From Neopestalotiopsis rosae (lineage: Eukaryota > Ascomycota > Sordariomycetes > Amphisphaeriales > Sporocadaceae), in the NCBI GenBank assembly GCA_023078685.1, contig JALGAS010000001.1, forward strand, positions 4,898,001 to 4,962,000: a DNA stretch of 64,000 bases, read 5' to 3'. Made by a program: the position numbers and the translations under genes. Under the pieces are notes generated by a model. The model was not told where the DNA came from. It worked only from the letters and a program-made list of their open reading frames with translations, and ran no database searches. Positions within the stretch are counted from its first letter, which is position 1. Each line of letters opens with the position of its first letter. Of the stretch, positions 44,751 to 63,735 are shown in pieces.

Positions 44751-45266
44751 CTAATTCGGAGGGGGGCCAGGTCGGCCACCTTGAGGAGCAGGGTTTCCAC
44801 CCTGAGGTGGTGGCGGCGGCGCGGCATTATTATTATTGTTCGGCGGTGGTGGACCTTGAGGACGCTGAGGAGCTCGGGCGACCAGATCGACAACCTCGCC
44901 GGACTCCTCTCGCTTGTTGGGCGGCGGACGGCGTCCTCCTCCACCTTGCTGCTGCTGCTGCTGTTGAGGTGGCGGCGGCTGGTTGTTGTTGCCCCCGTTG
45001 GGGGCCGGCGGAGGTGGTGGTGGTGGAGGAGGACCTTGAGGTTCGCGCGCGGCGATCTCGACCACATTCTGCCCTCTTTTCTTCTGGGGAGGAGGAGGAG
45101 GAGGAGGCGGAGGAGCTGCATTATTGGGCGGCGGCGGTTGCGCCTGTGGCGCTTGCTGCTGGGCGGCCGGCGCCCGGTTGCCTCCTCGACCGCCGGGACG
45201 CTGGGCCACGGGGGAGGCGTAGGCGGAGCCGATCATGAGAGCGGCAAAGAGGATGGAGAGCTTCAT
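44751..45266 (-). CDS. Small secreted proline/glutamine-rich protein with two Kex2-type repeat units
   Basis: A single exon of 171 residues with a good signal peptide (MKLSILFAALMIGSAYAS) and context CAAAATG. The mature part is dominated by Pro, Gln, Asn and Gly homopolymer tracts. Inside these, two related segments each follow a dibasic Kex2-like site: KKR at 62-64 then VVEIAAREPQG, and KR at 118-119 then VVDLVARAPQ. The spacing and the shared V-V-acidic-hydrophobic-x-A-R core suggest a duplicated unit, possibly released by Kex2 in the Golgi. It could be a cell-wall or adhesion-like protein, a Kex2-processed repeat peptide precursor, or a ribosomal peptide precursor. No cysteines are present in the mature part, and no UstYa-like tailoring gene is in the window. 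The function is unknown. Confidence 0.8.
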   Translation of the reverse strand: MKLSILFAALMIGSAYASPVAQRPGGRGGNRAPAAQQQAPQAQPPPPNNAAPPPPPPPPPQKKRGQNVVEIAAREPQGPPPPPPPPPAPNGGNNNQPPPPQQQQQQQGGGGRRPPPNKREESGEVVDLVARAPQRPQGPPPPNNNNNAAPPPPPQGGNPAPQGGRPGPPPN

Positions 45267-47729
45267 TTTGGTGGGTATATATTTGTATGTACACGACTAG
45301 CGCGGTATGGAGATTTGGTGTTATTAGGTCGGATCAAGTAAAACAAGGCAGACCAGCCGCTAGAATGGAATAAGATTAAGATGAAAGAAAAGAATCTACT
45401 TTTACAGACTTCCTGAGCTGTTGTAAGGCTGTTGGTGAACGAGGACACTTTTCCGAGTAGACGTAAGTCTTCATATAGTCCTTCTGTAAGACATTACACT
45501 CACCACCGCATCGGTCACGTCATCTGACACTTTCCTCAGATCTTCGTATTAGAACAAATGTTTTTGATTGTACTCGTCATCAGGGATGGTCACTAGATCG
45601 ATTATAGAAGCTGCAAGCATGCCAGAACACTATTTGGGGGTTACTGAAACCTCATCGGCGAAGATCTTGAGCGATTTGTAAGTGCCAGGTCTTCTATAGG
45701 GTGTGTAAATACTCCCGCTATCAGTTTCTTGATCTAGTCTTGGCATGAACGGAGAACTCCCAAGACAGAGAAGCTTATGTTTTAGCATCGTGAGATCCAC
45801 CAAGCTCCTGGTTTCCTGTCAGAAAGTTGGCACGCGGAGTATGACAGGTCTGTATACCCCAAGAAATCAGAACATGCTTAAATCAAAGCCAAGCCTTGTG
45901 GAATTGGAAAAGACTCGGAGTGGGGGATCGCTTTCGATCGCACGCATGCGGTCCAGAAAGCTGGAATAGTTGATTCCAAACCGGAAATCCCGTATACCGG
46001 AATGCAATATCCCGCCGCTTCGGGTCTGCAGGTCGTTGGCACCCCCCGGTCGGGCGGCTTACGTGGCCTGGGGTCAACATGATCTACCCTTTGGGCCCTT
46101 TTGTGGTTTCATACAGCCGAAAATGAGTACCTGGAACTCTTCTTGTTGCGCTTCCAAAATAAAACCTCCTCAACTACCGGAAAAGAAGTTATCGTTCTTT
46201 CAATGGCCTGTTGTGGCCCTAGTTTGGCATCGGCCTTGGCGGGCATCTGGACCTAAAGGTTGGCCTGTTGCCCGTTAATCTGCCCGGATGCGGCGCTTAT
46301 TACTACTATGTGAACTAACCACACGACTACGCAGATGAGTTGTCATCTGATGACTCTGAATATAACTATAGATGAACGTATTTCTTTGGTATTTTTCTTC
46401 GAGATTCCAGAATCGCAACTTTCATGTGCCTGGTATAGTGACATTAAATTGTTCAATCTTCGCACTTTGCGGAAACATGGATACAATAATGTGAATTCTG
46501 CTCAAGCATTTCCCAAGTCTACCCAATAACACATAGCAAATGGGCAATATGGCATGTCAATAGAGTTGTGCGTGGATCACTCGAAATCAACTGATTGTGC
46601 AGTCATGTCACACTTCCAATGACGAAAGTCACCTGAATAGCAGGCCTCAAAGCCGCATAACAACAATATCTCTTCCGCCCAAAAAGAAAAAAAAAATACT
46701 TGTATTGACTGCACATTCCAGTGAATGTTCCCGTGACAGTGGACTGGAAGGGGAGTTGACTGTTTAAAAGATTGGCCATCTGGTGCCAAGCCAGGCGATG
46801 GTTCTACTATACAGTAGTACATCATATGTAGGCCAAATGGCACTGAAATAATGTAACCAGCGATCCCATCTTCTGATTCTCCGAGACTTAAAGGTAAGGA
46901 TAATATACGTCGCAAAGGCGTTTTATAGCATACGTCGGCACATGGTGATTCAACTTCAACTGTGAACCAAAGAGTAAAGTAGAGCTACTCAAGAAAAAGG
47001 CGGTGTTGTTCATGATGATTGATATTCATGCAGCCAAAAAAGACACGAGATCTATGAATAAATGCGCCGGAACAGTGACAGCGCGACTGAACTAGTCTCA
47101 AACAGTGATGGCGGGATTGTGGACCGATCCGCGAGTTTAATTGGTAGATCTGGAGGTCACGCTAAGACGGTTCAAGACAGGCGCTCTGCATAACACGAGC
47201 TCCGAGCTTTTTTTGTACTATGCGTCTGTATGGGGGGACTCGAAAGCACGGGCCAGAGTGGAACAAACAAATGGAGCCGTGGTCCGGGCCAGGTCCAATG
47301 ACAGTTGACAACTTGGAAACCCCCCAGCCAAGCGTCACCCTTTCCCATGGCAACGGGTCCTGATCTTGATCTTCAGCCTTGACAGAGAGAGAGTGAGAGG
47401 GAATCCTGCTGAGCCCACCACAACTTGACGCCTGGGGCGCATCGCAGCAAAGACTCATTCGCTCAAACTCCACCGAGTCGGTCGTCGCATTGTTCTCGAT
47501 CCTCTCTCTAGTCACTCGCTGCTGAAACAGAAAGAGAGAGAGAGAAGAGAGACGCTCAACAAACCATTTTTATCCAACCATAACTATCACGACATTCGTT
47601 CTTTGCAAACATCAACAACACGTCACCCGTTCCAGACGTCGACCCGAGAACGACTACCCTTTTTTCGCTGCCGAACCTCTATACCGAACACAGTTGTCGC
47701 GCGAGCCTGCCGGTCGCAACGCCGAAACC
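45267..47729. other. Intergenic, 2.46 kb, including CHS7 promoter and leader
   Basis: No gene recognised. A short GA-rich run lies at about 47528-47550 in the CHS7 leader. Frames in 45.7-46.3 kb and 47.1-47.5 kb have no recognisable features. Confidence 0.4.
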
Positions 47730-48802: not shown

Positions 48803-49389
48803 GCTGTGGCGAGGTTTTGCCTCTTTCTTGAAATATGAAGGAGCAGAAAATTACGGTAGGACATCACCATCAGTGAGGTGGAAATATTGCATTGGCATGG
48901 GGTTCAGGGCGTTTACTCCTATCATCTTGTGCTTGAATAAGTTTTAAAAATAGCTTTGTTATAATCATAGAATAGTCCTCTTATATCCAACTCGGAGCCG
49001 TATTCCCAGGAAGATGTAGTATTCAGATGTGCAAATTTGGACCGAGAACAAATTTTGACTTGAGCAAAGTATCCATGACCACTTGCATGATTTTCAAAAT
49101 CCACCAACATAGGTAAGCAGTGGCATTTGAAAGTGCCTGTGACGTGACTGTCGGATATGAATCGCAGGTTCGGCCCCACCTTACCCCAGATTGACGATCG
49201 CAGCTACCAGCTACCTAGTACTCCACTACTGCAAACGATCCTAGTTGTGAAAATCGTCCACAGATTTCTCGAACACCGACTTCTTCCAAAGTTCTCCACT
49301 TACCTTTGGCATAGGGAGAAGTTTGCAGCCAGTTCTCTTCCTCCCCGACCACTTAAAGTGCCGTCAACGGCAGAGGAAAAAGACCAATC
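48803..49389. other. Intergenic between CHS7 and DUF4604 genes
   Basis: 3' UTR of CHS7 followed by the promoter of the next gene, about 0.59 kb. No other feature was seen. Confidence 0.4.
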
Positions 49390-49962
49390 ATGCCACCCGA
49401 CAAGATCACCTCAAAGAACCTCTCCTACGACCAGTCCCTGCCGCCGTTCCTCGCGCGGCTCCGTGGACAGCAGGTTCTGGACGCGCAGTCCCCCGATCCC
49501 AACCTGGCCGCGCGCCGAAGAGCCGCCAAAGTACGCAGCGCCAGCGAAGAGGCCGAAGATGCTCCCGTGGTGGTGGACGAGGACGGCAACGTCGTGCAGC
49601 TGAAAGCAGGGGAGCTAGGCGACGAGGACGAGGACAACGGGGAGAACGGCAAGAACGCAGACGGGACCACGACGGTCGACAAGAAGAAAGACGACCCCGC
49701 CGCTGCCCCGGAAAAGGAGAAGGCGGCTGGCATAGGCGCGGCCAAGAAGCGCAAGGTCGGCCGGGTTATCGGCGGAGACGACGATGAGGAAGAGGGTGTC
49801 GATGCCGCCATTGCCAAGGCTGTCAAGATGACCAAGAAACTTGCCGACGAACCTGCCAAGGAGCCGGCCAAGACAATTGATGCCAACAAATCGAGCGGAA
49901 AGGGCGACAAGAAGAAGAAGGCCAAGAAGATCAAGCTTAGTTTTGGCGACGACGACGGCTGA
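49390..49962 (+). CDS. DUF4604-domain protein, acidic and lysine-rich
   Basis: A single exon of 190 residues. The N-terminus ITSKNLSYDQSLPPFLARLR is the signature of DUF4604, a family of small eukaryotic proteins of unknown function. The middle is acidic (GDEDEDNGENG, GDDDEEEG) and the C-terminus is a polybasic stretch ending KKKKAKKIKLSFGDDDG. This composition suggests a nuclear, largely disordered protein, perhaps linked to RNA or chromatin. Localisation and role are inferences from composition only. The stop lies about 250 bp from that of the convergent GT8 gene. Confidence 0.85.
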   Translation: MPPDKITSKNLSYDQSLPPFLARLRGQQVLDAQSPDPNLAARRRAAKVRSASEEAEDAPVVVDEDGNVVQLKAGELGDEDEDNGENGKNADGTTTVDKKKDDPAAAPEKEKAAGIGAAKKRKVGRVIGGDDDEEEGVDAAIAKAVKMTKKLADEPAKEPAKTIDANKSSGKGDKKKKAKKIKLSFGDDDG

Positions 49963-50214: not shown

Positions 50215-51285
50215 CTATTTGTTGTTGGCAAATCCTTGCACATTGCTGCCAATAGCTTTCATATCAGGATCTTCCTCACCACCAGTCCAATCAGCATGCC
50301 TCGTCCCGGTAGGCGGCGCGACTCCTCTCCTCACCAGAGTTATCACGCCAGACTGCTCGCCTGCAGTCGATGCTTTCTCTTCTTCCCATTGCTTATACGC
50401 GTCCCACCACCACTGATGCGTCACACCGTCACGCCCCTTGTATCCAGCTGTGCCGTCTACATCATTGCGTTTTGCCCACGGCTTGTCAACGATATAGTGC
50501 AGGCAGACCACTTCTTCGTCGCGCCAAATATTCTCGTGCCAGTACCTCATTGTCTTTAAGGCATTATACTGCCACCCAAGCGCGCACCATCTGCCCCGAA
50601 AGTAGTGTGCCAGGAAATCCTGATCTGGAAACTTGAAGGAAGACAACAATGGCGTCGTTTGAAACTCGGTCAACATGTCAGCCCACAGTTCTTGCGTAGG
50701 GCGAAATAGGAACATTCCACCATTTAGGAGAGTATGCGTCCTGGGCCCATCGGCCGTAGGCTGTGTAGGCTGGGTGAGCGCCATGGGATGGCTGACTGGC
50801 GTATAAGCGCAGTTCTCGCGGCGCCAGTCTGCCGGGGCCCAGGGATCGCCATCTCTGTTGCATACACAAGAGTGATTTGTCCCAATCCAGCCTTCTGGTA
50901 GTTCCGCTGCCTTGTCGAATATCGAGTCGGCATTGCGGAAAACTGCCATGTCGGCGTCTAGGTAGCAGACGACGTCATACTCGGCAAGCTCAAAAACGCG
51001 CAACTTTGTCCATGTATCTGCAAAGCGTTCTGCTATAAGAGCGACTTGTATGTTCTTGGGCGGAAGTAGAACATCACACGGGCGCAGTATAATATTGCTG
51101 TCAGCAGTCTCGAGTCTCAAGGCCTCGAGAGCTTGGTCGGAAAGCGTGGGTGTATACAGCACAACTAGAGGATATTGGCTTCCGTGCTTCCTCAATGTGT
51201 GTGCCAAAATCACGACGCCGGCAAGATAGCTCGCACGTGTAATCAATGTTGCGTAGGCAAAACCTTTAGCTACACCCTTTGCCAT
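50215..51285 (-). CDS. GT8 family glycosyltransferase (glycogenin/galactinol synthase-like)
   Basis: A single exon of 356 residues. The fold starts with AYATLITRASYLAGVVILAHTLRKHGS as in glycogenin-like GT8 proteins. The metal- and nucleotide-binding DxD motif is at residues 110-112 (YLDADMAVFRNAD), followed by LLNGGMFLFRP at about 186-196 and LHYIVDKPW near residue 282. GT8 enzymes transfer glucose, galactose or related sugars from a UDP-sugar to polyols, proteins or small molecules. No signal peptide or membrane segment is evident, so it is probably cytosolic. It is immediately downstream of the cyclase of the mycosporine-type cluster and on the same strand. A role in glycosylating the product is attractive but unproven, as GT8 genes are also common elsewhere. 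Confidence 0.88.
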   Translation of the reverse strand: MAKGVAKGFAYATLITRASYLAGVVILAHTLRKHGSQYPLVVLYTPTLSDQALEALRLETADSNIILRPCDVLLPPKNIQVALIAERFADTWTKLRVFELAEYDVVCYLDADMAVFRNADSIFDKAAELPEGWIGTNHSCVCNRDGDPWAPADWRRENCAYTPVSHPMALTQPTQPTADGPRTHTLLNGGMFLFRPTQELWADMLTEFQTTPLLSSFKFPDQDFLAHYFRGRWCALGWQYNALKTMRYWHENIWRDEEVVCLHYIVDKPWAKRNDVDGTAGYKGRDGVTHQWWWDAYKQWEEEKASTAGEQSGVITLVRRGVAPPTGTRHADWTGGEEDPDMKAIGSNVQGFANNK

Positions 51286-52188
51286 GACTTCTGTTCGACC
51301 GGAGGACCCTGCGTGCGTGGTTCCAGTATGGATCTTCCCAGTTTGCCCGCATTACTTTGTAACAAGTTGATATTCTAGTGACAGTGCGGCCAAGTAGAAG
51401 GAGGTTGTGTGCAAGATCACTTTCTCGACTACAAGTCAACTACGTCATGCATACCAGAGAACCACAACCGGCATTTCGTCGCACGCCTGGGGCAATCGTT
51501 GCCGGGTCACACCATGATTTCATGACTTTCTCGCGGAGTGCGGACCGCACCATGAAACCAAAGTTCCGCCATTTCGTGTTAAGTTGTGTATGCATGTTAT
51601 ATATGGTGTCGTTTAAATACACTTTTTCTATCAAAGTAAAATCATCCAATACTCTCGTAGTCTCACGAGCTGATGGTGTCAAGACCCTAGTAACAAGACC
51701 TCTCCCACGTGCCATTGGGCCAAAGTTTATACGTTCTCTCGGGTCTAGGAAGCAAAGCAAGTGCGGGCTTCAACACCCTCACGCAATCTAGTTTGTTTGG
51801 CCCCTACAGCTGATCCAGGAACGTGAGTAAAGTCAATTGGCCACTAACGCAAAGAGGGAAGCAGTGAAATGTTTATCACATGTTACAAAGAGAGCTCGCA
51901 TACTGCTTTGCATTATCGTAAGATCATGACGAAGTTCAAAGACATGGGTCAAAATCTTGTGCATCGAATTTATTGATATTGCTTTTCTGCAGAATCAGGT
52001 GTCCATCCAGTGTGTTGTGTTTGGATCACAAAGATTCAATCACAGTTTTTCTGCTTTTCTCTTTGTATAAAATCATAATAGTACGCCAGTGCCGAATTAT
52101 GCAGAACCCAAATTATTCAAACTCCATTCCCCATCAAGAGAAAGTTTTGGAAAGTATATGGGGAACCACCTGATCATGACGCTTGTTT
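51286..52188. other. Intergenic between GT8 and sugar-phosphate cyclase genes
   Basis: GT8 promoter plus 3' flank of the cyclase gene, 0.9 kb. No coding feature was recognised. The length leaves open whether GT8 belongs to the neighbouring cluster. Confidence 0.4.
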
Positions 52189-53920
52189 TTATGCTTGAAC
52201 CTTAACTCCATTTGTGTACGGCTTCTTGGCGTGGCCATTGCCGTTGGACAGCAAAGCCGCCTTGGCCTTTTCGAGCAGGGAGACGTCGCCATTATTACCA
52301 TTGACGTGTCCGTTGGTTCCATTGGTGGCGCCGTTGCCATTGATAACCTTGCTGCCCGGCGGGATGTCGGCCTCCTCCGCGGCGTCGTCGACGCTCTGGC
52401 CGTTCTCGGTGTAGCCCGTGTCGCTGCTGTCGACGTAGGCCTCGAGCCCGGCGCCCTCGCGCGGGTACGTCTGGCAGATCTCCTTGTGGCGCCGCAGGGC
52501 CGCCCGGAGCTCGTCCTCGGACACGTCGTTGATGAACCGGCAGCTGCCGAGCGGGTTGGGCACGGCCAGGCGCAGTAGGCCGTCGCGCGTCTTCAGGATG
52601 GCGGCGGTGCCCTTGTCCAGGACCTCGTCGTCGAACTGCGGATGGTCAATGCTGAGGCCCGCTCGAGAGAAGAGGTTCAGCAGCCGGCGGTGCTCGTCGG
52701 CCGAGAGGAGGCCACGCTGCATGGCCAGGGTGGCCGAGTACGCCATGTCAATCGAGATGGCGTGGCCGTGTCGCAGAGGCGTCTCGGGCACCAGCTCGTG
52801 CAGTGGTGACCAGCTGTTTCACTCGAGTCAGTATGTGGACATGATTTAGAGTTTTGCGAGATGTAAACTCACGTGTGACCATAGGCAATAACTCTATCCA
52901 GTCCGATCTCGTGCAGGTTGGGCGACTCCAAGCGCAGCATCTCAAAGATACCCTCGCGGTTAATCTGCATGGCTTGTCAGTGATCTAGCAGCCAACAAAG
53001 TTTCTTTCTTCTTCACGGGTTAAACAAGACACTTACAACATCGGCCGCCTTGCGGACCTCATCGAGAGCACCATCTGCTCTACCGAACCGAGACTCGATC
53101 AATTGCTCGCAGTACTTGTCCAGCAGGTTGAACACTTCCAGGTGGGAGCACGACGAGATCTTGATGAGCTCGGCGAATCCGTTTCGCACCTGAGCAATCG
53201 GCAGCGTGCGCAAAAAGGTAAAGTCCAAAAAGGTGTGCATGGGGGCGTGGTATGCGCCCAGGCGGTTCTTGTATCGGCCATAGTTGACGGCCACCTTGAT
53301 GCTGACGCTGGCGTCAATGAGACCAATGACGGTGGTGGGAATGCGGATAAAGTTGGTGTTGCGTCTGTAGGCGGCGCAAGCAAAACTTTAAGGAAAAAAG
53401 GAGCTTTGGGTTAGCAGGTTTGTCATTGTGTAATGCTATGGGGAAAACATGTCGTGAGAGAGATTCTCCTTACCCAGCGACGTCCGTGACCAGACCTCCT
53501 CCAACGACGAGAACGGGCTCCTGGAAGTCACAAAAGTGTTAGTCAAGGACTGTAATGTCATGTGGATTCGGAAGGTCAAGATGGCCATACCTTTCGAATG
53601 ATACCAAAGTCCGTCATGGAATCGCAAATCTCCAGGAACGTGTCAATGGTCTTTGCCTTCTCGCCAATCGACGTCTTGTGAATCTTCAGCTCGAGCCCAT
53701 AATGTCTAAAGTACTTTTCCATCTTGTTGCCATAGACGTTGTAGACATTCTTATCCGTGACGGCCAAGACTCTGCCCCAGCGCTTGTAGCAGTCTGCCAG
53801 GTTGGGATTGGCGACATCGAATACTCCGTCGATAAAGGTAAAGTCATACTCAATCTTTTCGTAACCTTCGACATGGAAGCCGTTCTTCGTCTCCGAAACG
53901 CTTGCCTTAAGGTCAGACAT
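52189..53920 (-). CDS. Desmethyl-4-deoxygadusol synthase-type sugar-phosphate cyclase (MysA-like)
   Basis: Five exons on the minus strand (53920-53591, 53520-53474, 53385-53037, 52964-52873, 52813-52189), all phases matching, give 480 residues. It belongs to the 3-dehydroquinate synthase superfamily: NAD site [18 protein letters not shown], then [21 protein letters not shown], metal ligand region [10 protein letters not shown], and histidine motifs IAYGHTWSPLHE and [11 protein letters not shown]. The segment [13 protein letters not shown] and the overall pattern are those of cyanobacterial and fungal desmethyl-4-deoxygadusol synthases. These convert sedoheptulose 7-phosphate to the core of mycosporines. 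Unlike bacterial forms, it has an extra Asn/Gly-rich C-terminal tail of roughly 75 residues ([18 protein letters not shown]). It is divergent from the methyltransferase gene across about 1 kb. A valiolone-synthase function is the main alternative, less likely given the neighbours. Confidence 0.92.
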
Positions 53921-54952
53921 CTTGAAAAAAGAATATTTGAGACTGTAGCAAGTAGTAGGACCTATGACTTTGAATGTGGTTCGAGGAGTAGAAGGAGATG
54001 AAGAACACGATGAGAATGAGAAAATGCTCTCTTCTCATTCGGACCTTTGGGGGATATGGGAAACTTTAAGGCCGCTTCTATTCCCCATGAGCCAGCACAG
54101 GAATTCCATACATTTCCCATGTCTAGGACGTTTTCTTGGATCCGAATCCACGCGTCATCACTATTGGGGAGATCCGCCCCGTACAGTCCAAATCGCCCTT
54201 GTCCAAAATACCGTATTTCCCCTCCTGAAAACGGATGTACATGTTTGACTGAGAGAGAGCATCATGAGTGAAAGCTTGACCTAAGGCAGCTTTACCCTTT
54301 TGTGTGAGACGCGACGATCCACGAAGATCAACAGTGCTACGAATCATATAGTAGCGCCCGCCTAGTGTGGTCCCTGATCGGCAATGGCTCTTCTACATAG
54401 TGGTATGCAGGGAGTCTTTCTACCTGGATCATCCTTGACTCAGCTTCCCGGAGATGGTGGACTAGAAAGCAGCTAGTGGTCGTCTAGAAGAATTAGTTGC
54501 AGTATAGAGTTGGCGTCAAATCGGGAACAACCCCCCAATCCACGGTTTGCTGCACGTAACATAGCACAGAGCATAGCTAGAGATGCGAGGCGAGCTGATT
54601 GGCGGAAATATGCTCCGGGTCACATAGAGGTACCTCTGCATCTTCGTGTCGTCACTATAAGTCAATGACTTCAAGACACGGGAGTAGTGACACATCACAT
54701 TTCCCATGAGCCGCATGCAGCAACTACAGAGCTTTGAGAACCCAGACCACATTTCCAGCAGTCAAGGACCGAGGCCCTTTCTTAGTTTTTTGACAGGCAG
54801 AATTCAAAATCCCATGTTGCTTGGGGAGCAGAGCACACCTTTACCAAAAAGGAAAATCAATAGAAACGCGTAAAGCTCGACCAAAATTCTCGACAAGATC
54901 GCGTCTTATACAGAAAAAACTTTGTCTACTCACCAATAAGTTCTCAGCAGCC
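53921..54952. promoter_or_regulatory. Bidirectional promoter region of cyclase and O-methyltransferase genes
   Basis: About 1.03 kb between two divergent start codons of genes predicted to catalyse consecutive steps. It is a natural site for shared regulation, for example light or stress induction. No specific operator could be named from the sequence. Short frames inside it are not supported. Confidence 0.5.
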
Positions 54953-55958
54953 ATGGCAGGGGCAGTACACAAGGACTTCAAAGGCACTGCCTATCAACCG
55001 CAAGAAGAGGTTTATGTACGTTATTGCCGTGATCTGATTATTCCTTGATTTTACTCTTTAATTACTGGCCACCAATTGTTCTAACTCTGTTATGCAGTTT
55101 AATGATGGACGAGAGATAGCGCTCTTACACTTTATCTACAGCCACCCGAATTTGGAACAATTGCGCGGCAACCCGCAAAAGGTCCTCGACGCCATTGACG
55201 AGTATGGCAGGACCAAAAAGTACCTCATGAACATTGGCGAGTACAAGTCCAAGACGGTCGTGGACCTGATCGCCGAGGTCAAGCCCCAGGTCATGGTCGA
55301 GATTGGCGCCTACGTCGGCTACTCGGCCATTGCCTTTGCGGCCGCCGTGAAAAAGGCCGGCGGCAGGCGGTACTACAGCCTCGAGCACAACCCCGAGTTT
55401 GGCGCCGTGACCTCGTCGCTGGTCGACCTCGCGGGCCTCGGCGACATCGTGACCGTGGTCATTGGCTCCAGCTCGGATGCCCTGCGGCGTCTGCACCGGG
55501 ACGGCGTGGTCAAGCACATTGACGTGCTCTTCCTGGACCACCAGAAGCCGTTTTACACCCCGGATCTCAAATTGTGCGAAGAGCTCGGTATCGTGGGACC
55601 CGGGTCGGTGTACGCAGCGGACAATGGTAAAAACCCAATTTCCCCGTCTTTGATACCGATATACCGTTGCTTTTCCGTCATTTGTTGCTAACGTGTTTCT
55701 TTTTCAAAGTGGTTAAACCCGGCAATCCTCCGTATCTCGAGTATGTGAGAAGTACCGTCGAACAGAAACGCCAGCGATTCGAATCTGCCAGCAACAATGA
55801 GCCCAAGGGAAACCCTGATCTTGTGTACAAGAGCGAATTCGTGGAAGGCTGGGAGCCAAGCGGGGTGCCGGTAAGATGCGACCACTATTTTCCGAGAATC
55901 ACTTGATGCTAATATTTGACAGGATGCCTTGGAAATTACTAGATGTGTGAAGGCTTAG
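54953..55958 (+). CDS. Catechol-O-methyltransferase-family methyltransferase (MysB-like)
   Basis: Four exons (54953-55015, 55098-55626, 55710-55870, 55923-55958) give 262 residues. The first exon is 21 codons and the last 12, both in phase. The S-adenosylmethionine site is VEIGAYVGYSAIAF (residues 88-101). The metal ligands of catechol O-methyltransferases are present with the family's spacing: Asp168 in LFLDHQK, and Asp196-Asn197 in YAADN. In the mycosporine pathway a methyltransferase converts desmethyl-4-deoxygadusol to 4-deoxygadusol, and the neighbouring cyclase and ATP-grasp ligase make this the likely role. Catechol or flavonoid methylation is the alternative in isolation. A branch site (GCTAACG) precedes the third exon. 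No signal peptide; cytosolic. Confidence 0.9.
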
Positions 55959-56828
55959 ATGATTGGACTTTGAATGCAATGATTTACTTTGGGCGCGTCG
56001 TCAAGAGTGACTTGGTCGAAACGACAGCATCATATTAGACGTTCGAATGACAGGAATTCACAGAATACTTCCTGAGATCGTATCACAAAATCTGCTCATC
56101 ATGATCATCATCATTTATTCAAGCGAGCGAGTTACGCAAATAGTGTACGCATTGTACTTTATCTAAATGAACAGACTCAATTGAAAGTATTTAATTATGC
56201 AACGACTGACTGTAGTGAAACCCGTATACTCATCGCAATTCACTGACCCACCCCTGGCGACTTTTGTGATATCGTCTTCGGTCTCGACTCGTACTAGCCA
56301 CAGAGCCTCATCCACTCTCCTTGTCTCGCTTAAAATCAGCTGGCCCCAGGAATGTAGATCGTACATTCGTCCAAGTAATTAGTGTACATATTTTACGGTT
56401 CGGCAGTATCATACTGATGCGTTGTTCTTTTGCTTGTGGGGCTGAGAATTTCGCTGATGATTCATGAGTGAGTGAAGACAATTGACTAGGTCCATGATGG
56501 CTTTTGTGGGAGGAGGTGCTTTTTTTCTTTTCAGCTCGAACAATGTTTAATGCACGTAGAAACATAATTCCTTGTGAAGGAAAACCATCATTCAAACCAG
56601 GAGTTTATTCATCTATCAAACTTTGCACTAATTCTCGCGTGTACTTGATTCGTCGCGCCACAGGAAAACTCAATTGCTTGCCAGCCCAGCCAGCCACCTT
56701 GATGATCTAGCTCCCGTCATATCCATCAAACTACACAGTACTTGCATCAGCACAACGCCAAACCGTTGTAGAACAGCTTCCTTCTGTGTGCGACGCACTT
56801 ACGTTGTCTGACAGTATTGTAGCCAATC
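55959..56828. other. Intergenic between methyltransferase and ATP-grasp genes
   Basis: About 0.87 kb: 3' UTR and the ATP-grasp promoter. An ATCATGATCATCATC run is at about 56098-56112. No gene was recognised. Confidence 0.4.
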
Positions 56829-58430
56829 ATGAATCGTCTAGGTTTGTCCAATGCCGTTCGCTCCTTTGCGCTGGCTACAGTCAGTGTGATATTGGCCCCG
56901 TGGTCGTTGGCATTGGCATTGCTGGCTATTCTCCTGCGACCGTTGCCATCAATACTTGGATCATCGAGATATCCGCAGGCGAAATGTCTCAACCCAGTCA
57001 GCAGCCGGACTATCCTGGTCACGGGGGTCGGCATGGCCAAGGGATTGACCATTGCGCGCGCCTTTTACCTCGAGGGTCATCGCGTTGTGGGCGCCGATTT
57101 TGAACATCAAGGCATTCCTTGCTCTGGGAGGTACTCGAGGAGCCTGGCAAAATTCAGGTCAATGAGACCACCATCAGGTTCATCACACGCCTCGCGGAGC
57201 AGCTACGTCCATCAGATGCTGCGGATTGTCAAGGAAGAAGATATCGACCTCTGGGTATCTTGCTCTGGCGTCGCCAGTGCCCTCGAGGATGCCAAGGCCA
57301 AGGAACTCATTGAGAGGGAAACGAGGTGCAAGTGTATCCAGCTCGGGGTCCAGCAAACGGCGACGTTGCATGAAAAGGACTTGTTCATGCGCGAGGCACA
57401 CAGACTCGGCCTGCCGGTTCCAGAAACCCACAACCTGACATCTCCAGACGATACCCTCAGCATCCTGTCGAAGAGCCAGGCCTTGCACCCGGAGCGAAGG
57501 TTCATATTAAAAACCGTCGGGGTGGACGATGCCAACCGCGGAAACATGACGCTTCTGCCGCTCGATACCAAGGACGCGACAAGCCGGTACATTTCCCGCC
57601 TCTCTATAAGCCCGGAGCAGCCCTGGATCCTGCAAGAGTTCATCCCTGGAGGCGAGGAATACTGCACCCACGCCCTGATCGTCCGGGGCGAGGTCAAATG
57701 CTTCGTGGCCTGCCCCAGCGCCGAGCTGCTCATGCACTACCGGGCCCTGGACCCGCGGTCGGCGCTCTCGCGGGCCATGCTGGCCTTCACGCGCGAGTAC
57801 GTCTTTCGCTCGCCCGACTCGGAGCAGTTCACGGGCCACCTGAGCTTTGACTTCATGGTCCGCGACAGCGCCGTCGACGAGCGCTGCGTCGAGCGGTCCC
57901 TGTACGCCATCGAGTGCAACCCGCGCGCCCACACGGCCGTGGCCCTCTTTGCTGCTGCTGCAACTCACGAGGACGGCCGCGGCAACAACAAGGGCCGTGG
58001 TGGCGCCTCGGGAGAGACAACGACAACCTCGGCGGCCATGGTCAAGGCGCATCTCTCGGTCCTCGAGGACACGCCCGAGAGCTACGCACGCGTTCTGAAG
58101 CAGAATGGCCTGCGGGAGGAAATGATCGTATTTGCACCCGCGACCACGCTGCCGAGATTCTGGATTGGGCACGACCTCTTTAGCCTGCTCCTCCGGCCCG
58201 CGTTGGACTTTGTTGCGGGCCAAAGGACGGTCCGCCAGCTCCTGTCTTGTTGGTTGCAGTTCGTTGTGCACTTGTTGACTTGGAAAGAAGGCACGTTTGA
58301 GCTCTGGGACCCGTGGCCGGCGGTGGTCCTGTATCACGTCTACTGGCCCCTTACGATACTGTCGGCGTGGTGGCGAGGATTCCATTGGAGTAGGGTCAAT
58401 GTGAGCACGACAAAAATGTTTGCGTGTTGA
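56829..58430 (+). CDS. ATP-grasp ligase (MysC-like, 4-deoxygadusol-amino acid ligase) with membrane segments
   Basis: A single exon of 533 residues. Residues about 13-36 form a hydrophobic anchor (ATVSVILAPWSLALALLAIL). The nucleotide-binding pre-ATP-grasp part follows (TILVTGVGMAKGLTIARAFY), then the ATP-grasp domain: Lys228 in RFILKTVGVDDANRG, PWILQEFIPGGEEYCT at 265-280, GHLSFDFMV and the metal-binding IECNPRAH with Glu362 and Asn364. The C-terminal region has further hydrophobic stretches (WPAVVLYHVYWPLTILSAWW), so the protein may be held at a membrane. In cyanobacteria MysC joins glycine to 4-deoxygadusol with ATP. A MysC-like role is inferred from the fold and from flanking cyclase and methyltransferase genes; the amino acid used here is unknown. 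A His/Arg/Asn-rich insert of about 25 residues follows ECNPR. Confidence 0.88.
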   Translation: MNRLGLSNAVRSFALATVSVILAPWSLALALLAILLRPLPSILGSSRYPQAKCLNPVSSRTILVTGVGMAKGLTIARAFYLEGHRVVGADFEHQGIPCSGRYSRSLAKFRSMRPPSGSSHASRSSYVHQMLRIVKEEDIDLWVSCSGVASALEDAKAKELIERETRCKCIQLGVQQTATLHEKDLFMREAHRLGLPVPETHNLTSPDDTLSILSKSQALHPERRFILKTVGVDDANRGNMTLLPLDTKDATSRYISRLSISPEQPWILQEFIPGGEEYCTHALIVRGEVKCFVACPSAELLMHYRALDPRSALSRAMLAFTREYVFRSPDSEQFTGHLSFDFMVRDSAVDERCVERSLYAIECNPRAHTAVALFAAAATHEDGRGNNKGRGGASGETTTTSAAMVKAHLSVLEDTPESYARVLKQNGLREEMIVFAPATTLPRFWIGHDLFSLLLRPALDFVAGQRTVRQLLSCWLQFVVHLLTWKEGTFELWDPWPAVVLYHVYWPLTILSAWWRGFHWSRVNVSTTKMFAC

Positions 58431-58634
58431 GGGATTCGGGGTGCAGTATTCGCGGGGGTGACCTGCGTGGCCTACGAAATAGCAATTTATTTTCTCTTTG
58501 TGATCAGTATGAAATGTATCATCATGTTCGGATCGTTGGTGTATGTTCTTTTCCGTAGAGATAAAACCACATCACATTTAATTTTGAGAGTAGCAGCTAG
58601 GTAGCCACTTTAATCATTATTTCTATACTGTTAT

Positions 58635-59550
58635 CTAATCGTCGACTGGCTTCACTATAGCACCATCCCGACCTTGGTCAAGTTTGTTCAAGCTAGCCAT
58701 GTCATCTTGATCTAATTCAAATCCGTAAACATCCGCATTTTCCTTGATGCGAGAAGGCGTGTCACTTTTGGGAAGCGGAATGTATCCTCTTTGTAGTGAC
58801 CATCGAATGAGTATTTGAGAAGCAGTGACTTGATGCTTCTGGGCTATTTTCAGGAGAGTCGGGTCGTCGGATTTCTTGTTCCGCACAATGGGACAGTACG
58901 CCTCTACTGCAATGTTGTGCTGCTCACAGTATTTCACCGTTTTTGCTTGTTGACACCACGGGTGCAGCTGTCGTCGGGTTGTCAGCATTTCCTGCCCATT
59001 GAAATTACCGTTGTCTGGAATTGTCACTTACTTCGATCTGATTTACATGGGGCGGCCAGATCTCAGCATACTCCTTCATCTCCTCAATGTGCTGAACGCC
59101 GTAGTTGCTGACTCCAATACTCTTGGCCCGTCCCTCCTTGTGCAGCCTTTCCAGAGCCTGCCACAACTCCTTTCGCTTCTCCTCGCCACAATTGGAGCTG
59201 TGGATCAAGAACAAATCAACGTGGCCGTCGGCACCGCGCGGGTCGAGTTCCTCGACGCTCTCCAGACACTGCGCGTAGCTCTGGTCTACGGAGCCTGCCG
59301 GGTCCAGGATCTTGGTCGTCAGGTACACGTCGTCGCGCGTCACCCCTTCCGCCTTTTGCCATGCCTCTCCGACCTGGCTCTCGTTGCCGTAGAATTGCGC
59401 CGTGTCAATGTGCCGGTAGCCGCACCCCAGCGCCGTCAGACACGACTGCACACAGACGTCTGGCGGTGACTTGTACACGCCAAAGCCGAGCCGCGGAATC
59501 GTGTGAGAGTCCGACAGCTGAAGTGTATCTGTGATTCCTTTGGGTTTCAT
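58635..59550 (-). CDS. Aldo-keto reductase
   Basis: Two exons (59550-59032 and 58967-58635; donor GTAAGT, acceptor GACAG) give 283 residues. The catalytic tetrad is visible: Asp49 and Tyr54 in YRHIDTAQFYGNE, Lys80 in VYLTTKI and His117 in VDLFLIHSSN. Other family blocks are AKSIGVSNYGVQHIEEM, the spliced QIELHPWCQQ and IPLPKSDTPSRIKENADVYGF. I start at ATG 59550, since upstream in-frame codons lack an ATG. These enzymes reduce aldehydes or ketones with NADPH. The gene is divergent from the NRPS-like gene and tail-to-tail with the ATP-grasp gene (about 200 bp). Reduction of an aldehyde released by the NRPS-like reductase domain is a sensible but unproven job. Confidence 0.92.
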
Positions 59551-60300
59551 GTTGGGCGTTGCCGTCAATGTGGAGTATATTCAGGCTTTCACTTTGTCAG
59601 GTCTGAAGATCTCGTGAAACTTCTGCCCGCTAATTACAGATGCGCATATATGACTATCTGAGTCGCAATATTCAATTATGCAAATAAACTCATCTGATTC
59701 GGCACAAGAAATGCTTGGTACTGTTTGAAGGAGACATATGTGCATGAGGAACCCTAAACCTACGTGGCTAATAATGCAAATCAATGACCTCATGATGACC
59801 CATACTAACTTTGCAAATGGATTGAGACGCACTCGAATGGATTGATGTGGAAACTTGTGTCATTCCATGACATGAGTGCATAATGTAATAGAAAGAAATA
59901 AGCAATACTAGAATCCTAGAATGAATCCCTTGCCGAGAATTGTGACCCCTCGTCTGGTACATTTGTAGCGCAACAACTTGCAGGCTTTCATCCCACAACA
60001 CTGCATTAGACCACAATGGTACACTCGTGAGGAGGGAAGTATGAGACCGACTTGACCAATCAATCCACTGGGAAGGTTAATGCCTTTTACAGGTTTTGAA
60101 CGTTCATTGGGCTATTTGACCGTCTATGTTGGTGCTGTCCATACTGTTCTCGGTCTTCGGGTGAAAAGCTCCAAGGAACCCGAAATAACTATAATCTGAG
60201 TGCACACGTTCCAAGTATCTTGCTTGGGGCCATATACATACATGTAAAGCAGACACATTACACTTGACGGTGATTTGCACTTTGCTCTCGTGATATGAAC
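59551..60300. promoter_or_regulatory. Bidirectional promoter region of aldo-keto reductase and NRPS-like genes
   Basis: About 0.75 kb between divergent starts. An ACCAATCA (CCAAT-box-like) element lies near 60055. No other regulatory site could be assigned. Confidence 0.4.
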
Positions 60301-63300
60301 ATGGCTGATACGGATTCGGGCCCATTGAACTACTTCACCTGCACACTGGGCCAATCTGCAGTATGGAAACGCCAACAACCAGAGGGGGCCAGCACAGGCT
60401 ATCATACTGTCCTCGAGCTGATCGACGACAAGGCACAAGAATCACCCGACGATGCGGCTATCGGGTTTGCAGATTTCACGTTCGATAAGCAGGGACATGA
60501 TGGCAAGTCACTCCCATATAGAAATGGTGAATTTCCTCTCTTCTAACAGTGAAATCAGACTTGCCCTTTCTCACGTTCGGGGCACTAAGCACACGATCCA
60601 AGCATGCTGCCAAAATCCTGTCCACAGAATTGCAAGCATCTGGGATAGATGCGTCACCCGTGACCGTCGGTTTGCTTTGCAGCAGTAGCCTTGACTTTGT
60701 TCTGACATGGCTGGGCCTGATGCGTTTAGGCCACACAGCCTTGCTTCTTGCGTGAGCGGCCATACATTTCCATCAATACTGATAGCATGGCTAATCATCT
60801 TGTCTATAGACCGCAGCTTGAGGGTCCTGCAATAAAACATTTGTGCGGGGTCGAAGGGGCAATGATCATACTCGTAGACAAGGCGCATGAGAAACGGGCA
60901 TCGCAGCCCATCGAGGGCGTAACCTTTCAGCTCCTTCCCGACTATCTTTGCGCAGATGCCCTGGCAAGCCCTGACCCGGAGCTGCTGCTACATGTCCCGA
61001 ACGGCTCAGACGTTGCGTATCTGCGACATACCTCTGGTACGTCGTCCGGTCTGCCCAAGACCATAGTCCAGAGCCACTGGGGAGCCGTGGGCGTGCTGCC
61101 GCGGTTGACGGGCCATGAGCACAGCGCCACCTTTACCACGACACCGCTGTACCACGGCGGTCTGGCCGATTGCTTTCGGGCGTGGACGGGCGGTGCCATG
61201 ATCTGGTTCTTTCCCGAGGGCGTGGTGCCCGTCACCGAGACAAGTGTCGGAAAGGCCGTCGACTACGCGCGGCGCAACAGTCCGAGCGGTGTCAACGTGG
61301 AGTACTTTACCAGCGTGCCCTATGTTCTCCAGAGCCTCGCCGGCGACTCCGAGGGCCTGCGACTGCTCCGAGGCATGAGCCTGGTGGGCGTGGGGGGAGC
61401 TGCGCTCGCAAGTGCCGTGGGTGACGAGCTCGTGCGCCAAGGCGTGAGGCTCGTCTCGCGGATGGGCAGCGCCGAGTGCGGGTTCCTCATGTCCTCGCAT
61501 CGAGACTACGACAGCGATCAGGAGTGGCAGTATCTGCGACCTGTTGCGAACGAGGATTTCCTTGCCTTTGAGGCCCGCGACAACGGTCTGTTTGAGCTTG
61601 TTGCCAAACCAGGCTGGCCGTTGAGAGCAAAGCAGAATCGCGATGACGGTTCGTATGCGACTTCGGATTTATTTCAGCCGCATGATACGATACCACATGC
61701 GTGGCGATATCACAGCAGGTCTGATGCGCAAATCACCCTCGCCAATGGCAAAAAGTTTGATCCAGCTCCGCTAGAAAGCGACATTCTTAGCAGATCTGAT
61801 CAGCTCAAAGATGTCTTCGTGTTTGGCACGGGACGAGACTTTCCAGGCGCACTATTATTTCCTAAATCGGAGAAGCTGTCAGCAGCCCAAGTCATAGAGG
61901 GCGTCTGGCCAACGATAGAGCGCGTCAACAGCTCTTCGCAAAATCATTCCCGCCTCACCAAAACTGCCCTGGTCGTGGTGCCCAGAAAGGGCAACGAAGC
62001 AGGTCTTGAGAAGAGCAGTAAAGGGACCGTGATGAGACGCCAAGCAGAAGAGAAGTATGCAGAGCTGATCGAGGCTGTGTATGGAGCGGGAAATGATCAG
62101 CACTTTCACCATGAGCCTCTAGACACACCACAGCTGCAGGACAGGATCAGCGAAAAGTTCTCCCAGGTTCTTGGCCGACGTATTGATCCTAATGATGACA
62201 TATTCAGGCAAGGGGTTGACTCGATCGCTTGTACCCAAATACGCAAACTGGTCGAAACTCATCTCGTGCCGGTCGAATCACGCCCACTGCCACTCAACAT
62301 CATCTATGAGCAGCAGAATATCCGCGCATTAGCCTTACATATTCAAAACGTGCGGCAAGGCAATGGATGCGTGACTGGCCTAGGGAATGGAGCCGTCGAG
62401 GATTCCGAGATACAACAAATGGCCACATTCAGCCGATTATACGGAGACTTTGGTTCGGCAATATTGTCTCCGACTGGACCAAAGCAGGGTACACATCACG
62501 GGGTCATTCTGACTGGTGCTACAGGGGCACTTGGTGCTCATCTCCTACACTATTTGCGAGACTCCCCTGAGGTGCGCAAGATATATTGTCTCGTTCGTGC
62601 GCAAACAGCAGAGGCAGCTCATGAGCGAGTGTCTGAAGGTCTACGAGCGCGTGGACTTCGCGAGCTGGAACGACCTTTGTCGTCCCCGTTACACGAGCAT
62701 CAAATAGTCTGTCTACCATGTGACATGTTCAATGAAGATTTAGGACTTTCAGAAGAGGTGAGAGACCTCATCGGCCAGGATTGCTCCATCTTTGTCCATG
62801 CAGCGTGGGCGGTGAATTTCCGCCTACGGCTCGGCTCATTCGAGGACCACATACGAGGACTGCATTATATGATGCGTTTCGCAATGTCCATTGGATCGAA
62901 TTTCGTCTTTGTAAGTTCCACAGCCTCGGTCAGTAGGTCGTCGGAGCAGCGAATATTGGAAACAATCACATCAAGCGCGTCCGATGCCGTTCCGTTGGGT
63001 TATGCCAGATCAAAGTGGGCAGCAGAGCAGATTTGTTCGGCGGCGAACCGACACTGCACCAATATGGCCAGAGAACGAGGTCTGGTCCATGGAGGACAAT
63101 ACTCTCAAATCTCTGTTGTCCGCGTCGGTCAGCTGTGCGGAAATGCAGCCGGCGTCTGGAATGCCAGCGAAGCATATCCGCTAATGCTGTCGACGGCAAA
63201 GATCACCGACTGCCTGCCTGATTTGCAGGACGAGAGTTTAAACTGGCTGCCTGTTGACATGGCGGCGCAGTCTATTTTGGAAATCATAATACACGATAAC

Positions 63301-63735
63301 AACAGTGACGATGGTGGACGTGTTGCTGGTGGTGGTGCGGACCTCGGTGGCGCATGTCCGGTCTACCATGTCTTGAATCCGCACAGGCGACCTGCATGGC
63401 GCGACATGCTGGAATGGATTCGGAAAAGTGACATGCAAGGAAATCGGTCCACTGCTTTTGAAATAGTGTCACCCCGCGAGTGGATCAGCCGCCTGGAGAA
63501 GGCCCTGAATGCTGGCTCTGGCCTGCACCCCGCGCAGAAATTAGTGGGCTTCTGGCAGCAGAAGTATCATCGCGACGAATCGATGGTGAATGGTGCTGAT
63601 ACTACACCTCACAAGGTCGCCGTTTTTGATACAAAGAATAGCTCTCACGTGTCAAAGACCATGGCGCAAGTCCCACCGCTGTCACCAACGCAGGTACTGA
63701 GAATGTGGGCATGGATCTGTAGTCATGTTGCATGA
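60301..63735 (+). CDS. NRPS-like protein, adenylation-thiolation-reductase (A-T-R)
   Basis: Exons 60301-60526, 60559-60751 and 60810-63735 give about 1,114 residues. Adenylation motifs: YLRHTSGTSSGLPKTIVQSH (residues 214-223 within it), RMGSAECGFLMSS, YATSDLFQPH and RSDAQITLANGKKFDP. The carrier domain has FRQGVDSIACTQIRK, with the phosphopantetheine-accepting serine near residue 611. The C-terminal thioester reductase has VILTGATGALGAHLLHYL at about 703-720 and the catalytic YARSKWAAEQI (Tyr871, Lys875). There is no condensation domain. Such enzymes activate an acid as adenylate, load it on the carrier and release it reductively as aldehyde or alcohol. ATG 60301 is preferred over ATG 60295 for its A at -3 and G at +4. 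The first intron would be only 32 nt (60527-60558), unusually short; the second (60752-60809) is normal. Its place beside mycosporine-type genes suggests an amino-acid or mycosporine carboxylate as substrate. Confidence 0.9.

What the first reader, a model, noticed from the sequence alone, without database searches (positions are those of the whole stretch)
52189..63735. Candidate fungal mycosporine biosynthesis cluster: cyclase, O-methyltransferase, ATP-grasp ligase, aldo-keto reductase and A-T-R NRPS-like gene
Seen: five adjacent genes whose products carry the motifs of a desmethyl-4-deoxygadusol-type cyclase, a metal-dependent O-methyltransferase, an ATP-grasp ligase, an aldo-keto reductase and an adenylation-thiolation-reductase protein. 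Known: in cyanobacteria MysA, MysB and MysC (cyclase, methyltransferase, ATP-grasp) make mycosporine-glycine from sedoheptulose 7-phosphate, and an NRPS-like or ligase enzyme adds a second amino acid. Inference: this fungus makes a UV-absorbing mycosporine, with a tailoring set (A-T-R plus aldo-keto reductase) different from the bacterial one.
Basis: partly seen in the sequence, partly recalled or inferred. Interest (0 to 1): 0.88.

Follow-up and report, generated by a model that had tools for sequence, protein, structure and literature searches.

The report
Fungal sunscreen cluster with reduction genes
In a fungus whose closest match is Neopestalotiopsis, the three genes whose relatives build UV-absorbing mycosporines sit beside an aldo-keto reductase gene and a carboxylate-reductase-like gene that likely turn the sunscreen's amino-acid tail into an alcohol, which would explain how fungi make their alcohol-type mycosporines.

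Summary
In detail: five intact, neighbouring genes at 52189-63735. The core is a mycosporine cluster. The cyclase is DDGS-type: 512 bits to 5tpr, 242 to the valiolone synthase ValA, at most 116 to dehydroquinate synthases, with DDGS-type residues Ala269/Thr348. The 533-aa protein is a full-length homologue of the MysC-type protein beside a cyanobacterial DDGS and has an ATP-grasp fold. The methyltransferase is catechol-OMT-like, only distantly related to MysB. The other two genes are probably not chance neighbours: ATP-grasp and A-T-R genes share at least 32 contigs, their sequential locus tags lie exactly two apart (6 of 6 readable pairs), and in Pestalotiopsis fici the gene between is this AKR. 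The A-T-R protein is unlikely to add a second amino acid: it ends in a reductase domain resembling the Neurospora carboxylate reductase, and its A domain has His where four NRPS A domains of the same genome have Asp. I propose that A-T-R plus AKR reduce the side-chain carboxylate to an alcohol, as in mycosporine-serinol or -glutaminol. No activity or product was tested. The AKR/A-T-R pair also occurs in Fusarium, where no mycosporine link was seen, and in Hypoxylon the AKR lies elsewhere. A new variant of a known cluster type.

The parts
52189..53920 (-). DDGS-type sedoheptulose 7-phosphate cyclase (MysA homologue), 480 aa; exons 53920-53591, 53520-53474, 53385-53037, 52964-52873, 52813-52189
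   Evidence: Gene model; Pfam; 5tpr 512 bits, ValA 242 bits; A269/T348; tree
54953..55958 (+). Metal-dependent O-methyltransferase, catechol-OMT-like, 262 aa; exons 54953-55015, 55098-55626, 55710-55870, 55923-55958
   Evidence: Gene model; Pfam; best solved relative 5zy5 (probable catechol O-methyltransferase 1), 159 bits; weak tblastn match in 68 of 80 bacterial DDGS loci
56829..58430 (+). ATP-grasp ligase (MysC homologue) with N-terminal hydrophobic helix, 533 aa, single exon; the only match in the genome
   Evidence: 27% over the full length to a cyanobacterial MysC-type protein, 6e-53; ATP-grasp fold; one match
58635..59550 (-). Aldo-keto reductase, 283 aa; exons 59550-59032 and 58967-58635; D49, Y54, K80, H117 present
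59551..60300 (+). 750-bp region between the divergent AKR and A-T-R start codons (shared upstream region, presumed promoters)
   Evidence: Follows from the gene models; no shared motif found
60301..63735 (+). A-T-R (NRPS-like, carboxylate-reductase-like) protein, 1114 aa; exons 60301-60526, 60559-60751, 60810-63735
   Evidence: Gene model; Pfam; homologues; H255 at the NRPS Asp position; structural match of the P. fici orthologue to the N. crassa carboxylate reductase R domain
50218..51291 (-). Flanking GT8 glycosyltransferase, 358 aa; possible but untested glucosyltransferase of the cluster
   Evidence: Pfam Glyco_transf_8, 4.2e-10; one of 5 GT8 matches in the genome; no conservation test was made

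Best explanation
This is a fungal mycosporine cluster whose cyclase, methyltransferase and ATP-grasp ligase would make a mycosporine-amino acid, and whose adjoining A-T-R protein and aldo-keto reductase likely reduce its amino-acid carboxyl group to an aldehyde and then to an alcohol. Predicted steps: DDGS turns sedoheptulose 7-phosphate into desmethyl-4-deoxygadusol; the OMT gives 4-deoxygadusol; the ATP-grasp enzyme couples an amino acid (serine, glutamine or a relative) to give a 310-nm mycosporine; the A domain of A-T-R activates the side-chain carboxylate, the T domain holds it as a thioester, the R domain releases the aldehyde with NADPH, and the AKR reduces it to the alcohol, as in mycosporine-serinol or mycosporine-glutaminol. 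Shown here: gene structures, families, domain order, conserved catalytic residues, and recurring linkage of the ATP-grasp, AKR and A-T-R genes. Inferred: every catalytic step, the identity of the amino acid, and the order of ligation and reduction; ligation first is favoured because the A domain lacks the Asp that in NRPS A domains binds a free alpha-amine. The confidence covers side-chain reduction in either order.
Against: Three Phaffia genes alone gave a compound co-migrating with mycosporine-glutaminol in S. cerevisiae, so an A-T-R gene is not needed everywhere. Orthologous AKR/A-T-R pairs occur in Fusarium and other Hypocreales, where none of the best 120 ATP-grasp rows is named Fusarium; the pair may serve another pathway there. 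In 5 of 5 Hypoxylon genomes with both rows, and in Exophiala spinifera and one Caloplaca assembly, the best AKR row lies on another contig than the ATP-grasp row. 49 of the 81 ATP-grasp rows that I entered have no matching A-T-R row in the capped list. Many shared contigs are megabases long, so sharing one is weak evidence of adjacency by itself. No shared promoter motif. No expression or chemical data.
Confidence: 0.6

Rival explanations
1. The A-T-R/AKR pair reduces the free amino acid to an amino alcohol (serinol or glutaminol), which the ATP-grasp enzyme then couples to 4-deoxygadusol. Same product, opposite order; its share is included in the confidence of the best explanation.
For: The Phaffia authors write that the ligase incorporates glutaminol. 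Other A-T-R enzymes reduce free acids (recalled).
Against: The A domain has His, not the Asp that binds a free alpha-amine (role recalled), in 7 of 7 family rows.
Confidence: 0.22
2. A-T-R and AKR form an independent small pathway, in Fusarium called NRPS11, that merely lies next to the mycosporine core in Xylariales.
For: AKR and A-T-R rows share a contig in Fusarium, Neonectria, Stylonectria, Paramyrothecium, Stachybotrys and Plectosphaerella, with adjacent tags wherever both can be read; in the A-T-R tree all Fusarium rows lie in a 65-row clade without any ATP-grasp-linked row. A second A-T-R with a neighbouring AKR exists elsewhere in this genome.
Against: ATP-grasp and A-T-R tags are two apart in 6 of 6 readable pairs from Pestalotiopsis and Apiospora, and the two share small contigs in Annulohypoxylon, Daldinia, Jackrogersella and Hypoxylon. 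Absence from the best 120 rows does not show absence from Fusarium.
Confidence: 0.27
3. The A-T-R protein adds a second amino acid, giving an imino-mycosporine as the bacterial NRPS-like enzyme does.
For: Both are single-module NRPS-like proteins beside MysABC-type genes.
Against: No thioesterase domain was found and a reductase is in its place; the A domain has His at the NRPS Asp position; fungal mycosporines are described as oxo compounds (PMC10057719 and PMC10384724 passages).
Confidence: 0.04
4. The cyclase is a valiolone or dehydroquinate synthase and the cluster makes a cyclitol or gadusol.
For: Same superfamily; Pfam names it DHQ_synthase. Valiolone synthases were represented by ValA alone in the tree, whose DDGS branch is drawn open.
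Against: Score ranking, fingerprint residues and tree all favour DDGS; the MysC homologue would have no role.
Confidence: 0.03

Closest known systems
Phaffia rhodozyma MYC cluster (DDGS-OMT-ATPG; PMC10057719)
   Same: Same three core enzyme types, clustered, in a fungus
   Different: The cluster is described as three genes, without A-T-R or AKR; its sequences were not compared here
Cyanobacterial MysA-MysB-MysC clusters (80 bacterial DDGS loci fetched)
   Same: DDGS 54-59% identical; the MysC-type protein of L012 homologous over its full length
   Different: The MysB-position protein of L012 is a strong Methyltransf_3 protein (189.5 bits), the fungal OMT scores 43.1 bits to the same model and is COMT-like; no AKR match in 80 of 80 loci
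Aspergillus clavatus acla_55850/55840/55830 and A. nidulans an6403.2/an6402.2 (listed in PMC10384724)
   Same: Listed as fungal mycosporine genes with neighbouring numbers
   Different: No A-T-R or AKR gene is listed; sequences not compared here
Hypoxylaceae 'mycosporine-like' NRPS-like gene clusters (PMC8403587)
   Same: NRPS-like gene clusters assigned to mycosporine-like compounds in Xylariales
   Different: The passages seen give no domain order for them, no AKR and no reductive mechanism
Fungal carboxylic acid reductases, e.g. Neurospora crassa (8aep)
   Different: Substrate unknown here; embedded in a mycosporine cluster
Fusarium NRPS11 (ChNPS12 subfamily; PMC6480918 passages)
   Same: Homologous A-T-R (P0160 is named nrps11), also on one contig with an AKR
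   Different: No ATP-grasp neighbour seen; product unknown (n/k in the table of PMC3694855)

Membership tests
Mycosporine (MysABC-type) cluster | DDGS-type cyclase rather than EEVS or DHQS | tested here: met
   (tree support 92/95, branch drawn as open, one EEVS row)
Mycosporine (MysABC-type) cluster | Adjacent O-methyltransferase | tested here: met
   COMT-type; only weakly similar to the bacterial OMT
Mycosporine (MysABC-type) cluster | MysC-type ATP-grasp ligase | tested here: met
   below the curated cut-off of PRK06849 (168.8 of 406 bits), whereas the cyanobacterial protein passes (519.3)
Mycosporine (MysABC-type) cluster | Production of a UV-absorbing mycosporine | not testable with these tools
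   Needs LC-MS of the organism or of an expression host
A-T-R carboxylic acid reductase | A, T and R domains in this order, no C or TE domain | tested here: met
A-T-R carboxylic acid reductase | Carrier serine (GxDS) and reductase Tyr-x3-Lys | tested here: met
   GVDSI at 608-612, YARSK at 871-875; D610, S611, Y871 and K875 invariant in 32 aligned rows; motifs recalled
A-T-R carboxylic acid reductase | Reduction of a carboxylate to an aldehyde | not testable with these tools
   Enzyme assay needed
Alpha-amino-acid-activating NRPS A domain | Asp at the position equivalent to GrsA Asp235 | tested here: not met
   His255; Asp in 4 of 4 NRPS A domains of the same genome; numbering and role recalled
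Cyanobacterial MAA NRPS-like enzyme (A-T-TE) | C-terminal thioesterase | tested here: not met
   Reductase in its place; the A-T-TE order of the bacterial enzyme is recalled
[quoted passage not shown]
   Ala269/Thr348; residue identities of the fingerprint recalled, existence of two such sites from PMC4426668 passages
Aldo-keto reductase | Asp-Tyr-Lys-His tetrad | tested here: met
   D49, Y54, K80, H117; tetrad recalled

The most novel reading that the evidence does not exclude
The A-T-R enzyme is a carboxylate reductase that takes a finished chromophore-bearing mycosporine-amino acid onto its carrier domain and releases it as an aldehyde for the AKR: a carrier-bound reductive tailoring step that would be the long-missing origin of the alcohol side chains of ascomycete mycosporines.
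Probability: 0.37. Interest if true: 0.75.

Novelty: new variant of a known kind. Interest (0 to 1): 0.6.

Why it matters
Fungal mycosporines with alcohol side chains (serinol, glutaminol, glutamicol) are listed in a review table, but the three-gene fungal cluster of Phaffia contains no enzyme that would make the alcohol, and the section read lets the ligase use glutaminol without a source for it. An A-T-R/AKR pair inside the cluster gives a concrete, testable candidate; the A-T-R gene shares a contig with the ATP-grasp gene in at least 32 assemblies, mostly Xylariales and relatives. It would also give a first substrate idea for the NRPS11-type A-T-R enzymes of Fusarium, whose product is listed as unknown, and enzymes for making alcohol-type natural sunscreens.

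Tried and rejected

Limits: the protein lists show only the best 120 rows (of 1259, 815 and 7975). One contig was judged by equal contig length plus equal organism name; one pair (49112 bases) has no name. Tags of the DRAFT style (JGI protein numbers, which do not follow gene order; recalled) were set aside; where both exist, as in Xylaria, they are far apart. Apiospora arundinis has the three rows on contigs of three different lengths, perhaps from different strains. The A-T-R tree left out 6 of 120 rows by length. Literature: ten searches in open-licence PMC papers; in the listings (titles, starts of abstracts) and the passages read in 15 papers I saw no A-T-R/AKR pair described in a mycosporine cluster. 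Subscription papers are not covered.

Full report
Source organism. The window is C1:4898001-4962000 of a 53.77-Mb, 17-contig genome. The ATP-grasp protein is 98% identical to one of Neopestalotiopsis clavispora and 78% to one of Pestalotiopsis fici, so the fungus is most likely a Neopestalotiopsis; the genome itself is unnamed.

Observation. Five gene models with GT-AG introns give complete proteins: cyclase 480 aa, OMT 262 aa, ATP-grasp 533 aa, AKR 283 aa, A-T-R 1114 aa. Cyclase and OMT are divergent, as are AKR and A-T-R (750 bp between the start codons). The left flank holds a GT8 gene (50218-51291) and then an unidentified lysine-rich ORF at 49357-49962; to the right a WD40-repeat-like gene begins near window position 65,550 (read from its sequence). 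I saw no transporter or regulator ORF between the five (ORFs of 100 aa or more).

Cyclase. Of 16 PDB sequences matched, 5tpr scores 512 bits, ValA (4p53) 242, dehydroquinate synthases at most 116. 5tpr is named a 3-dehydroquinate synthase in the listing; that it is the Anabaena DDGS is recalled, but it groups with 14 bacterial proteins chosen from 80 fetched loci, and 65 of the 80 loci match both our OMT and our ATP-grasp protein. Two active-site fingerprint sites separate EEVS from DDGS (PMC4426668 passages; residue identities recalled). Anchoring ValA His360 puts an Asp at ValA 281, as recalled; 5tpr has Ala and Thr there and our protein Ala269 and Thr348. In a 19-row tree our protein falls with the DDGS rows apart from ValA, the only EEVS row (92/95); the branch is drawn open, the bootstrap had not settled, and our row is long. 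The genome has two further DHQ_synthase matches, one in a frame that looks like AROM and one on C12.

Linkage of the extra genes. The protein tool gives no neighbourhoods, but its tables give locus tags and contig lengths. In the 6 pairs with sequential tags on both sides the numbers differ by exactly 2. AKR/A-T-R: at least 21 pairs, 10 of 10 tagged pairs differ by 1. ATP-grasp/AKR: at least 8 pairs, 3 of 3 tagged pairs differ by 1. All three rows share a contig in 5 assemblies; P. fici has 12761/12762/12763 and A. saccharicola PG996_003024/003025/003026. These are minimum counts from partly hand-chosen rows. Against a strict mycosporine role: AKR/A-T-R pairs also occur in Fusarium and other Hypocreales, none of which is named among the best 120 of 1259 ATP-grasp rows; in 5 of 5 Hypoxylon genomes with both rows (FL1150, FL1857, FL0890, NC1633, H. 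cercidicola), in Exophiala spinifera and in one Caloplaca assembly the best AKR row is on another contig than the ATP-grasp row. In a FastTree of 117 A-T-R rows the 33 ATP-grasp-linked rows (ours included) all lie outside a 65-row clade (support 0.995) that holds all rows labelled Fusarium and the other named Hypocreales rows.

Known and new. Fungal DDGS-OMT-ATP-grasp clusters are known (PMC10057719; PMC5103461 passages; table in PMC10384724). Hypoxylaceae clusters with NRPS-like genes were already labelled mycosporine-like (PMC8403587 passages), so the association with an NRPS-like gene is not first seen here. The domain order, the AKR, the recurring gene trio and the reductive role were not seen in the listings and passages of ten searches (listed under Tried and rejected).

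Scores. Mycosporine core: about 0.93. Side-chain reduction by A-T-R and AKR in either order: 0.60. Reduction on the finished mycosporine-amino acid: 0.37.

Noticed in passing
L006:4701-5846 (+), genome C12:767300-768445: A second, single-exon DHQS-like sugar phosphate cyclase (aroB model 254.6 bits, below its cut-off of 305) beside transcription-factor-like and P450-like ORFs (read from sequence); may head an unrelated cyclitol-type cluster.
   Followed up: partly
L096:3163-8826, genome C1:5683163-5688826: The best-scoring A-T-R paralogue in the genome (35% identity) runs on in frame into a kinase-like (P-loop) C-terminal part and lies beside a divergent AKR; a second A-T-R/AKR neighbour pair.
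   Followed up: partly
L005:4987-5796 (+), genome C1:4974987-4975796: Another AKR gene, 45% identical to the cluster AKR, about 17 kb downstream of it, beside a sugar-transporter-like ORF.
   Followed up: no
window 50218-51291 (-): GT8 glycosyltransferase directly beside the cyclase; fungal mycosporine glucosides exist, so it could be a glucosyltransferase of this pathway.
   Followed up: no
L008:6001-7239: Calothrix sp. NIES-4105 DDGS copy with no OMT or ATP-grasp match in its flanks, although the same genome has a second DDGS locus (L047).
   Followed up: no
window 44751-45296 (-): Short ORF with a signal-peptide-like start followed by long proline/glutamine/asparagine-rich repeats.
   Followed up: no
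P0187 and P0203 (Fusarium mundagurra, F. coffeatum): A-T-R rows annotated with a PF07992 oxidoreductase domain (P0203 also PF00172), perhaps fused gene calls that hint at other neighbours of NRPS11 in Fusarium.
   Followed up: no
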